A stretch of 46,788 nucleotides of DNA from Lachnospiraceae bacterium (GTDB lineage: Bacteria; Bacillota; Clostridia; Lachnospirales; Lachnospiraceae). The stretch lies in the NCBI GenBank assembly GCA_021770755.1, contig JAETQI010000036.1:1-46788 (forward strand). The letters run 5' to 3'. Both the position numbers and the translations under genes were made by a program. Under the pieces are notes generated by a model. The model did not search any database. It was not told the DNA's origin and saw only the letters and a list, made by a program, of their open reading frames with translations. Of the stretch, positions 31,169-40,423 are shown in pieces. Positions within the stretch are counted from its first letter, which is position 1. Every line of letters starts with the position of its first letter.

Positions 31169-31174
31169 ATTAGA

Positions 31175-31327
31175 GGTTCTAAGACCATGCCGAAGACAGT
31201 AGGTGCAGACATATTTCACGAAGATGATCATGTGTTCTGCGTAAGTGTAACGCCTACCGAGGAAAGAGTTTTTATGATGATGACTTTTACCTCCCGTTTT
31301 CTGTGTATATAGGATCGGGAGGTTTTT
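31175..31327 (+). ncRNA. Ribosomal L10 leader with terminator
   Basis: The leader shows the L10-leader pattern: GAAGACAGTAGGTGC at 31191-31205, GTAGG pairing with CCTAC in GCCTACCGAGGAAAG (31252-31266), and a final hairpin ACCTCCCG (31289-31296) / CGGGAGGT (31316-31323) with TTTTT. L10 (with L12) binds such leaders and lowers expression of its own operon. The terminator-like end suggests transcription attenuation. Confidence 0.85.
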
Positions 31328-31410
31328 ATGCGCAGACCCGTGCAGAGGAAATATGCCGTCAGTGCGGCGCACGGGTCGCGCGAGTCGGGAAGATGTTTTT
31401 TCCCAACTTG
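31323..31410 (+). repeat. Three-stem structured element, copy 1 (upstream of rplJ)
   Basis: Starts at the T-tract of the L10 leader terminator. Stem 1: 31335-31343 with 31369-31377 (GACCCGTGC/GCACGGGTC, 9 perfect pairs). Inside it, unpaired AGAGGAAATAT (31344-31354) and a small hairpin GCCG/CGGC (31355-31368). Then GCGC and a third hairpin, AGTCGGGAA with TTCCCAACT (one mismatch). The same layout with different stem bases is found at 40316-40423. Not recognised as a known RNA class. Confidence 0.65.
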
Positions 31411-31493
31411 ATTATATGGTCAGAAACTCCTGTCGGCAGGACGGACGTCTCTAATACAGCGTTCGTTTATCAAATCTATAAGGAGGTAAGAAA

Positions 31494-32057
31494 ATGGCAA
31501 AGATTGAATTAAAGCAGCCGATCGTTGAGGAAATCGCAGCTACGGTCAAAGATGCAGCCACGGTTGTGATCGTAAGTTACAGCGGGATCACTGTAGCTCA
31601 GGACACACAGCTTCGCAAGCAGCTTCGTGAAGCGGGCGTTACGTACAAGGTATACAAGAATACCCTGATGACCCGTGCGTTCAAGGGCACTGCATTCGAA
31701 GGTCTGACAGAGAGCCTGAAAGGCACAAATGCGATCGCGGTCTGTAAGGACGATGCGACAGCTCCGGCAAGGATCCTGAGCAAATTCGCAAAGGATTGTC
31801 CTGCAATCCAGCTCAAGGCAGGCGTTGTGGAGGGCATTGTTTACGACGAAAAGGGAATGGCAGAGATCGCAAAGATCCCTTCAAGGGACGAGCTTATTTC
31901 CAAGTTCCTTGGAAGCATCCAGTCTCCGATCACGAACTTCGCCCGTGTGCTTAACCAGATCGCGGAGAAGGGCGGCGCAGGCGCTTGTGAGCCGGCTCCG
32001 AAGGAAGCAGAGGCTGCTGCAGAAGAAGCCGCTGCAGAGGCTCCCGCGGCTGAGTAG
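31494..32057 (+). CDS. rplJ: Ribosomal protein uL10, 187 aa
   Basis: Anchors the L7/L12 stalk to the ribosome. MAKIELKQPIVEEIAATVKD, VVIVSYSGITVAQDTQLRKQ, LREAGVTYKVYKNTLMTRAF and FAKDCPAIQLKAGVVEG are typical. The C-terminal region is an Ala/Glu-rich tail (residues about 163-187), longer than in Bacillus. GGAGG ribosome binding site. Regulated through the L10 leader. Confidence 0.97.
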   Translation: MAKIELKQPIVEEIAATVKDAATVVIVSYSGITVAQDTQLRKQLREAGVTYKVYKNTLMTRAFKGTAFEGLTESLKGTNAIAVCKDDATAPARILSKFAKDCPAIQLKAGVVEGIVYDEKGMAEIAKIPSRDELISKFLGSIQSPITNFARVLNQIAEKGGAGACEPAPKEAEAAAEEAAAEAPAAE

Positions 32058-40279: not shown

Positions 40280-40320
40280 CAGGATCGGGAAGACAGATGT
40301 CCGCCCGGTCCTGCATTTTT
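40280..40320 (+). terminator. Intrinsic terminator after rpoC
   Basis: CAGGATCGGG (40280-40289) pairs with CCCGGTCCTG (40304-40313, one G-U), then CATTTTT. Confidence 0.87.
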
Positions 40321-40423
40321 ATGCACACGGGCGCCCAGAGGAAGAATGTCAGCATGCGCTGACGGGTGCCCGGCGCATGAGTAGGGGAAGAAGGCTCTTC
40401 CCTACTCGATTGCACACGGGCGC
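40316..40423 (+). repeat. Three-stem structured element, copy 2 (between rpoC and rpsL)
   Basis: Starts at the T-tract of the rpoC terminator. Stem 1: GGGCGCCC (40329-40336) with GGGTGCCC (40364-40371). Unpaired AGAGGAAGAAT (40337-40347). Hairpin 2: GTCAGC/GCTGAC (40348-40363). Then GGCGCAT and hairpin 3: GAGTAGGG with CCCTACTC plus AAGA/TCTT (40379-40407). It matches copy 1 at 31323-31410 in layout. A 13-base direct repeat TGCACACGGGCGC brackets it (40322-40334 and 40411-40423). Confidence 0.65.

What the first reader, a model, noticed from the sequence alone, without database searches (positions are those of the whole stretch)
31323..31410. A three-stem structured element occurs twice beside ribosomal/RNA polymerase genes
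Copy 1 (31323-31410) and copy 2 (40316-40423) share a layout: TTTTTATGC, stem 1, an 11-base unpaired AGAGGAA-containing segment, hairpin 2 closing directly against stem 1, GCGC, then GAGT-headed hairpin 3. The stem bases differ between copies yet pair in both: stem 1 is GACCCGTGC/GCACGGGTC against GGGCGCCC/GGGTGCCC, and hairpin 2 is GCCG/CGGC against GTCAGC/GCTGAC. The unpaired block AGAGGAAATAT/AGAGGAAGAAT is kept. Compensating changes with a conserved loop are what a functional RNA, or a palindromic mobile repeat, leaves behind. I do not recognise a known class. Both copies begin at a terminator T-tract and lie in the gene sense.
Basis: seen in the sequence. Interest (0 to 1): 0.78.

Follow-up and report, generated by a model that had tools for sequence, protein, structure and literature searches.

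The report
Mobile mini-elements parked behind gene terminators
The two hairpin clusters are copies of a short non-coding mobile element, found about 129 times in this gut bacterium, that lands just behind the stop signals of genes and seems to borrow the landing sites and 3' end of self-splicing group II introns, as a SINE borrows from a LINE.

Summary
Both copies belong to a dispersed, structured, non-coding repeat (unit about 84-95 nt): 129 matches in this genome, 34 of 38 genomes of the genus, 29 of 392 sampled genomes of the order; no Rfam match. 29 of 30 base pairs show changes on both sides over 54 sequences. Three sites are filled in some species and empty in relatives, with clean joins and no target duplication. 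It inserts behind intrinsic-terminator hairpins at the T-tract and stacks into polar arrays whose terminator-proximal unit is best preserved (40 of 48). Group II introns of the same bacteria use the same kind of site. Those of one class end in CTACTCGAT or one letter off, as do 85 of 99 elements, and 3 of 15 directly abut an element. A model built only from intron domains 5-6 hits elements in exact register (43 of 46 matches). Best reading: a non-autonomous satellite of terminator-targeting group II introns. The helper is inferred, not shown; intron maturases went undetected in several high-copy genomes.

The parts
31290..31327 (+). terminator hairpin of the L10 (rplJ) leader attenuator with its T-tract: the landing site of copy 1
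   Evidence: sequence: CCTCCCG..CGGGAGG-TTTTT; RF00557 match 31172-31337; the same hairpin is followed by the empty site in relatives
31329..31412 (+). copy 1 of the element (type A), TGCGCA..CTTGAT; its ends are uncertain by 1-3 letters
   Evidence: model R1 match 31327-31415, 90.8 bits (this copy is one of the 14 that built the model); empty sites in relatives
31335..31377 (+). core of copy 1: stem 1 GACCCGTGC (31335-31343) / GCACGGGTC (31369-31377), 11-nt unpaired AGAGGAAATAT (31344-31354), hairpin 2 (31355-31368)
   Evidence: fold; covariation
31382..31412 (+). hairpin 3 of copy 1 with an intron-like 3' end (CAACTTGAT, 2 mismatches to CTACTCGAT)
   Evidence: fold; 3' ends
31494..32057 (+). 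rplJ, downstream of copy 1
   Evidence: ORF; homologues in 33 of 38 genomes
40280..40320 (+). rpoC terminator hairpin and T-tract: the landing site of copy 2
   Evidence: sequence: CAGGATCGGG..CCCGGTCCTG-CATTTTT
40322..40410 (+). copy 2 of the element (type B), TGCACA..CTACTCGAT
   Evidence: model R1 match 40320-40413, 95.8 bits (also one of the 14 that built the model)
40328..40372 (+). core of copy 2: stem 1 CGGGCGCCC / GGGTGCCCG, 11-nt unpaired AGAGGAAGAAT (40337-40347), hairpin 2 GTCAGC-ATGC-GCTGAC (40348-40363)
   Evidence: fold; covariation
40379..40410 (+). hairpin 3 of copy 2 with the 3' end CTACTCGAT, the same letters as at the end of group II introns of the genus
40412..40423 (+). 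remnant of a second, older unit (GCACACGGGCGC, first letters of a type B unit)
   Evidence: sequence; remnants follow 32 of 106 clusters

Best explanation
It is a non-autonomous, non-coding mobile element that uses the target and the 3'-end signals of terminator-targeting (IIC-type) group II introns. Shown by comparison: the unit is about 84-95 nt; it lies directly 3' of an intrinsic-terminator hairpin and its T-tract, always the same way round to the T-tract, with no target duplication; successive insertions at the same T-tract build polar arrays; group II introns of the same bacteria occupy the same kind of site, share the element's 3' end (a domain 6-like hairpin, CTACTCGAT, then T) and stand in some of the same arrays. 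Inferred: an RNA copy of the element is taken up by a group IIC intron ribonucleoprotein, attached through its domain 6-like 3' end to the hairpin-T-tract target, and copied into DNA by the intron's reverse transcriptase, as a SINE uses a LINE. The unpaired purine segment AGAGGAAA might help to find the T-tract, but my test of that gave nothing. Inside transcripts such as the rplJ operon leader the element is probably a tolerated passenger.
For: 129 matches in 106 clusters. Structure kept under change: 94.2% of cells paired, 29 of 30 pairs with both-sided changes, covariation score 0.60 against 0.18 for shuffles and 0.06-0.11 for slid partners. Filled and empty sites: at rplJ 3 of 29 readable loci are filled; rplL-rpoB is filled in G042 and empty in the 9 others shown; rpoC-rpsL has a model match only in G000 among 29 loci, not all of which keep rpoC upstream. 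Terminator target: mean folding energy of the 42 nt upstream -14.6 kcal/mol against -6.0 at 248 other TTTTAT sites; a hairpin ends within 6 nt in 72 of 99 against 71 of 248 (Fisher p 8e-14). Polar arrays: remnants right of 32 and left of 4 of 106 clusters (2 of 207 background windows); terminator-proximal unit best preserved in 40 of 48, p 3e-6; neighbours of unlike type in 27 of 52 pairs, so not mere tandem copying. Introns: 6 of 8 readable 5' flanks are a strong terminator hairpin plus T-rich stretch; 15 introns of one class end within one mismatch of CTACTCGAT, 9 exactly (found with a pattern of that shape), and so do 85 of 99 full element matches but 0 of 485 control windows; 3 of those 15 introns directly abut an element (L344, L349, L352). 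Model R3, made from intron domains 5-6 alone, gave 46 matches at E<=10 in 191 kb, 43 of them ending exactly at an element's GAT. Group IIC introns insert after intrinsic terminators (PMC4424553, passages), and intron proteins can mobilise ORF-less introns in trans (PMC2882425, passages).
Against: The group II maturase domain was found in only 27 of 65 genomes searched, and not in several with 87-103 element copies (G040, G015, G021). In the genus copy number does not depend on its presence (median 27 with, 14 without, p 0.45). Many assemblies are fragmented. The element lacks a recognisable catalytic domain 5 and the intron 5' motif GUGYG. The base that bulges in intron domain 6 is paired in hairpin 3. 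R3 scores on elements are weak one by one (best non-intron E 0.015). R2 without filters mixes intron domain 5-6 hits with chance hits, and R1 matched domains 5-6 in only five of ten intron loci. Introns of other classes end differently. Relatives elsewhere in the order ('form I': own first hairpin, other third hairpin) share the core but not the CTACTCGAT end. The purine segment pairs with the T-tract no better than its shuffles (5.3 against 5.1 bases). No movement and no RNA was observed.
Confidence: 0.5

Rival explanations
1. A PATE- or REP-like element moved as single-stranded DNA by a Y1 (HUH) transposase of the IS200/IS605 or RAYT kind; the hairpins are DNA hairpins, the T-tract end is the target sequence, and no duplication is made.
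For: No target duplication, hairpins near both ends, insertion 3' of a short fixed sequence, as described for IS200/IS605 (PMC7290912, passages). Y1_Tnp occurs in 20 of 38 genus genomes, with weakly higher copy number (median 18 against 6, p 0.05), though copy number also rises with genome size (rho 0.58).
Against: 18 of 38 genus genomes have no Y1 match, among them G048 with 38, G012 with 47 and G006 with 51 copies; 7 of 28 genomes searched lack it (one of the 28, G046, also belongs to the 38). Only one of 30 Y1 loci has an element within its flanks, a 35-bit match about 0.4 kb away (L096), and none of 21 loci (one of them seen before). It does not explain the shared intron 3' end, the intron-element junctions or the hairpin in front.
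Confidence: 0.17
2. A mobile repeat of the bcr1 kind, moved by an unknown site-specific recombinase or other enzyme; likeness to intron ends is convergence or acquired sequence.
For: bcr1-bcr3 of the Bacillus cereus group: bcr1 11-130 copies, TTTAT motif, MITE-like, often in untranslated regions (PMC6542083 and PMC3446304, passages). Here too the letters are TTTTTAT and the copy number is similar. No gene family recurs beside the elements.
Against: No sequence of bcr1 was compared. Convergence on the same 9-letter 3' end, the same hairpin-T-tract target and the same junctions as local group II introns seems unlikely.
Confidence: 0.17
3. A cis-acting or small regulatory RNA (termination back-up, mRNA stabiliser, leader element) kept by selection at each site.
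For: Strong covariation; very stable fold; sits in untranslated regions, including an essential operon leader.
Against: The sites examined are not conserved between species; copies decay into remnants; copy number ranges from 0 to 112 within one genus; no neighbouring gene family recurs.
Confidence: 0.07
4. Decayed 3' fragments (domains 5-6) of group II introns that spread only by recombination, with no current mobility of their own.
For: Domain 6-like end; R1's only matches at E<=3 in ten intron loci are five domain 5-6 regions.
Against: Copies have fixed 5' and 3' ends, stems that vary with pairing kept, and occupy different sites in different species.
Confidence: 0.09

Closest known systems
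Group IIC introns (bacterial class C); here the Rfam group-II-D1D4-3 introns of the same genus and order
   Same: Insertion directly 3' of intrinsic terminators, no target duplication expected, 3' end CTACTCGAT followed by T on a hairpin like domain 6; some shared arrays and junctions
   Different: The element is about 20 times shorter, has no ORF, no match to domains 1-4, no recognisable domain 5, no GUGYG start. That these introns are IIC is my reading from target site and protein size, not from a tree
Group III introns of Euglena chloroplasts
   Same: About 90-120 nt, reduced group II introns that can lack domain 5 and keep domains 1- and 6-like parts; thought to need help in trans (PMC4424553, PMC2882425, passages)
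   Different: Those interrupt plastid genes and are spliced; here intergenic and bacterial, splicing untested
ORF-less group II introns of Thermosynechococcus elongatus
   Same: Non-autonomous introns mobilised in trans by a driver protein (PMC2882425, passages)
   Different: Those lack the ORF but are otherwise group II introns, not 90-nt elements
bcr1-bcr3 repeats of the Bacillus cereus group
   Same: Short structured intergenic repeats, bcr1 with 11-130 copies, TTTAT motif (PMC6542083, passages)
   Different: No link to group II introns known to me; not compared by sequence
REP/RAYT repeats and IS200/IS605-derived PATEs
   Same: Short hairpin-bearing intergenic repeats, often downstream of genes (PMC3733652, outline and passages; PMC7290912, passages)
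   Different: No unpaired GTAG or CGTC tag, no Y1 gene close by except one 35-bit match, bigger unit, structured 11-nt bulge
BOX/RUP repeats of pneumococcus, NEMIS, ERIC
   Same: Small structured intergenic repeats
   Different: Other architecture and hosts (recalled; named in search listings and passages only)

Membership tests
Group II intron (any class) | catalytic domain 5 | tested here: not met
   no RF00029 match on elements in 9 loci at E<=10; the core has a 9-bp stem and a 5-6-bp hairpin but an 11-nt bulge on the 5' side
Group II intron (any class) | 5' end GUGYG | tested here: not met
   the element starts (TA)TGCRCA, the introns GTGCG, GCGCG, GTATG or GTGTG; placed at ATGCG the start would be one letter off
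Group II intron (any class) | domain 6 hairpin ending in AY at the 3' splice site | tested here: met
   85 of 99 ends within one mismatch of CTACTCGAT; 43 of 46 R3 matches in register; but the bulged branch A is paired, so met for shape and end only
Group IIC target specificity | insertion after intrinsic terminator hairpin plus T-tract | tested here: met
   for elements (72 of 99), for introns (6 of 8)
Group III-like intron | spliced from RNA | not testable with these tools
   no RNA data
REP (GTAG/CGTC families) | short palindrome with unpaired GTAG or CGTC tag | tested here: not met
   GTAG lies inside the paired arm of hairpin 3; definition from the PMC3733652 abstract
REP (GTAG families) | RAYT gene flanked by the repeats | tested here: not met
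   no element next to Y1/RAYT-like genes apart from one match 0.4 kb away
MITE | target site duplication | tested here: not met
   empty-site comparison shows a clean join
MITE | terminal inverted repeats of 15-30 bp | not tested
   only a 4-position clamp joins the unit's start to the middle; no formal search for terminal repeats was made
bcr1 | sequence homology to bcr1 | not tested
   no bcr1 sequence was at hand (PMC524882 not held)
Rfam families | match to a covariance model | tested here: not met
   gathering scan of the window, E<=10 scan of 9 element loci

The most novel reading that the evidence does not exclude
Bacteria carry SINE-like retroelements: 84-180-nt RNAs without domain 5 that are taken up by group IIC intron ribonucleoproteins, reverse-spliced and reverse-transcribed into terminator sites, up to about 130 copies per genome, and perhaps removed from RNA in trans like Euglena group III introns.
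Probability: 0.33. Interest if true: 0.9.

Novelty: new variant of a known kind. Interest (0 to 1): 0.72.

Why it matters
If the helper is a group II intron, this is a bacterial case of a short non-coding RNA parasitising a retroelement. It would resemble the step, proposed for the origin of the spliceosome, from self-contained ribozymes to many small introns served by one machinery. It would also be a natural system in which to ask what minimal RNA a group IIC ribonucleoprotein will accept. Even without that link it is a family of structured mobile repeats in gut bacteria, not found described in the searches I made, which puts extra RNA structure into untranslated regions, including an essential ribosomal operon leader.

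Tried and rejected
Rfam membership: none. L10-leader extension: rejected, because the leader ends in the terminator before the element and 26 of 29 readable rplJ loci lack it. REP/RAYT: Y1 genes searched in 38 and 28 genomes, loci checked for neighbouring elements: no consistent association. RAYT-like genes of 193-290 aa seen there (the label is my reading) have other, GGGGACGGGG-type repeats beside two of the five whose flanks I printed. An autonomous copy with its own gene: no recurring gene family beside elements; the two largest groups I read as translations of the element itself. Guide pairing of the purine segment with the T-tract: no better than shuffled letters. Core homology to domain 5: left open. 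Presence of a maturase as predictor of copy number: not significant. A mechanical gene-context count put a same-strand gene upstream in 66 of the 88 clusters with a called upstream neighbour, but the ORF caller also placed 30 of 106 clusters inside long, probably spurious ORFs, so I give it little weight. Wider search with R2: 2 of 398 genomes of the phylum sample, this genome and one of its family. Papers: 10 searches showed no description of this repeat in their listings, which show at most 20 papers each; supplements and preprints were not readable, so an unnamed entry elsewhere (for instance among microbiome RNA candidates, PMC8040213, listing only) is possible.

Full report
What was checked. 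The window is contig C114 of a 4.7-Mb, 122-contig genome. All 23 stretches with an exact core match in the public genome collection are titled Lachnospiraceae bacterium, among them COE1 and IMSAGC_011.

Not two copies but a family. The motif AGAGGAANNATG occurs 64 times in the genome, against 8 for the same pattern read backwards. A covariance model (R1) from 14 copies of this genome finds 129 matches at E<=0.001 (150 of 2821 candidates scored). They form 106 clusters: 86 single, 17 double, 3 triple. Two main sequence types exist, 56 type A and 73 type B. In the genus 34 of 38 genomes have matches, 0 to 112 per genome (113 candidates scored per genome). In an even sample of the order 29 of 392 genomes and 23 of 173 genera have matches, with stricter filters and 10 candidates scored per genome. 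A broader model (R2) matches 2 of 398 genomes in a phylum-wide sample, this genome and one of the same family, under the same limits. No Rfam family matches.

Structure. The unit reads TGCRCA, stem 1 (9 bp), an 11-nt purine-rich unpaired segment, hairpin 2 (5-6 bp), stem 1', GCGC, hairpin 3, GAT. Over 54 aligned sequences 94.2% of pair cells are standard pairs. 29 of 30 pairs have changes on both sides, and the covariation score is 0.60 (shuffles 0.18; slid partners 0.06-0.11). The alignment was fitted to the model, which favours the structure; two of the 54 rows are poor (a decayed copy and a chance reverse-strand hit). Elsewhere in the order a second form ('form I') has the same core, its own first hairpin and a mini-hairpin in front, and a different third hairpin, often with a T-run. 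In one genus it is 182 nt long, identical in two copies up to sharp borders.

It moves. At the rplJ leader, 3 of 29 readable loci of the genus carry it: G000, G009 and a decayed copy in G042; one further locus was too short to read. Example: GGGAGGTTTTTA|element|TATATGGTCAGAAACTCC in G000, GGGAGGTTTTATATATCAAAAACTCC in G017. At rplL-rpoB it is present in G042 and absent from the window and the eight other loci shown. At rpoC-rpsL only G000 of 29 loci gives a model match; several of these loci have another gene upstream, and G012 seems to hold a decayed relic there, by eye. No target duplication is seen. Ends are uncertain by one to three letters because flank and element share T and A.

Target. 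Of 99 clusters with a usable left end, the 42 nt upstream fold at -14.6 kcal/mol on average (248 other TTTTAT sites -6.0; shuffled letters -6.3). In 72 of 99 a hairpin ends within 6 nt of the insertion point (71 of 248 control sites, 37 of 99 shuffles) (Fisher p 8e-14). Selection against insertion in genes may add to this contrast. The letters are T-rich up to TTTTTAT.

Arrays. Partial units follow the last full unit in 32 of 106 clusters and precede the first in 4 (2 of 207 background windows reach the same score). 27 of the 32 start at the unit's first ten letters. The terminator-proximal unit is best preserved in 40 of 48 informative arrays (p 3e-6): 15 of 20 with two or more full matches, 25 with one match and a right-hand remnant, against 3 with a left-hand one. 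Neighbours are of unlike type in 27 of 52 pairs, about what independent insertion gives, although hairpin 3 is more alike between neighbours (0.88 against 0.78), so some local copying or conversion is likely. The simplest account is repeated insertion at the same T-tract, older units being pushed away from the terminator and eroding.

Link to group II introns. The maturase-domain search showed one of the two intron proteins of this genome directly beside an element. I fetched 22 intron loci. In 8 the 5' end was readable. Six follow a strong terminator hairpin (-11.9 to -19.5 kcal/mol) and a T-rich stretch; L359 has a strong hairpin followed by ATACCTGATT; L354 has a weaker hairpin and TTTTCAAT. 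3' ends of 15 were found with a search pattern shaped like CTACTCGAT, so their likeness is partly built in: 9 are exact, 15 within one mismatch, 14 followed by T. For L345, L351, L355 and L361 the same end is where Rfam's domain 5-6 model stops. Of the other seven loci, six end differently or belong to other classes (CTACCCGAC twice, TTACCCGAC, CTACTCTAC, CTACTTACT, and L354 with CTACTCTAT) and L350 was not read. Among elements, 85 of the 99 matches of 60 bits or more lie within one mismatch of the same word, 0 of 485 control windows do. Three of the 15 introns are followed at once by an element, with the junction seen between two elements: L344 (this genome), L349 and L352. L361 is followed by a sequence like the first hairpin of form I, without a core match.

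A model of intron domains 5-6 only (R3, 14 sequences), run over 62 element loci (191 kb), gives 46 matches at E<=10: one is the intron itself, two are elsewhere, and 43 end exactly at the GAT of an element on the right strand. Single scores are weak (best non-intron E 0.015); the register is not. In the reverse direction R1's only matches at E<=3 in ten intron loci are domain 5-6 regions of five of them, at E 0.011-0.38. R1 contains many type A units whose stem letters resemble domain 5, and R2 without filters mixes domain 5-6 hits with chance hits. So likeness of hairpin 3 and the 3' end to domain 6 is well supported; descent of the core from domain 5 is not established.

How it probably works. 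Group IIC introns insert at intrinsic terminators (PMC4424553, passages) and recognise a DNA stem-loop (PMC10190682, passages). Intron proteins can mobilise ORF-less introns in trans (PMC2882425, passages). Reduced introns of 90-120 nt without domain 5 exist in Euglena plastids (PMC4424553). I infer that the element RNA, through its domain 6-like end, borrows such a ribonucleoprotein. Shown: shared kind of site, shared 3' end, shared junctions, mobility by comparison. Not shown: any RNA, any helper dependence, any splicing.

Against. Maturase domains were found in 27 of 65 genomes, not in G040, G015 or G021 with 87-103 copies, and copy number in the genus does not follow their presence (p 0.45). 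Assemblies are fragmented and introns are repeats, so absence is uncertain, but this is the main weakness. Y1 transposases show a borderline association (p 0.05) confounded with genome size, and in the loci examined only one has an element in its flanks.

Verdict. The finding is real and was under-called by its reader. Filing it as a group II intron would be wrong: domain 5 and the 5' motif fail. That it works like a satellite of group IIC introns is the best-supported reading, at 0.50.

Noticed in passing
L199-L200, L203-L204, L207-L208, L210-L211, L213-L220, L301, L303-L305, L307-L320: 'Form I' relatives in other genera: same core preceded by a long hairpin (often with TAGGAAATTCCTA-like letters) and a mini-hairpin, third hairpin often followed by T-runs; 182-nt version in genus g29.
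   Followed up: partly
L205, L206, L291 (G173, G315): A variant whose first and third hairpins share the letters GTCGTTTACTATA; several contigs begin with it, so it is probably abundant there.
   Followed up: no
L365 and L352: Group II introns that seem nested in or next to other group II introns.
   Followed up: no
L331, L333, L334, L336, L337: RAYT-like Y1 proteins of 193-290 aa in several element-bearing genomes; in L331 and L333 GGGGACGGGG-type repeats lie beside them.
   Followed up: partly
L144 (G048), rplJ leader: About 200 extra bases between the attenuator and the rplJ ribosome-binding site that are not this element.
   Followed up: no
window 31427-31438 and relatives: A block like CTCCT-TCGGCA is kept between the attenuator terminator and rplJ in most relatives shown; purpose unknown.
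   Followed up: no
L133 (IMG/VR contig), 599-690: A strong element match (92.9 bits) on a contig labelled viral; not checked whether it is prophage or host DNA.
   Followed up: no
L358 and L361, 3' side of the introns: Sequence after the intron in L358 (TATGCG..GCCGCCAGGGCGGCGC) may be a decayed element; in L361 a form I-like first hairpin follows the intron at once. Possible further intron-element junctions.
   Followed up: partly
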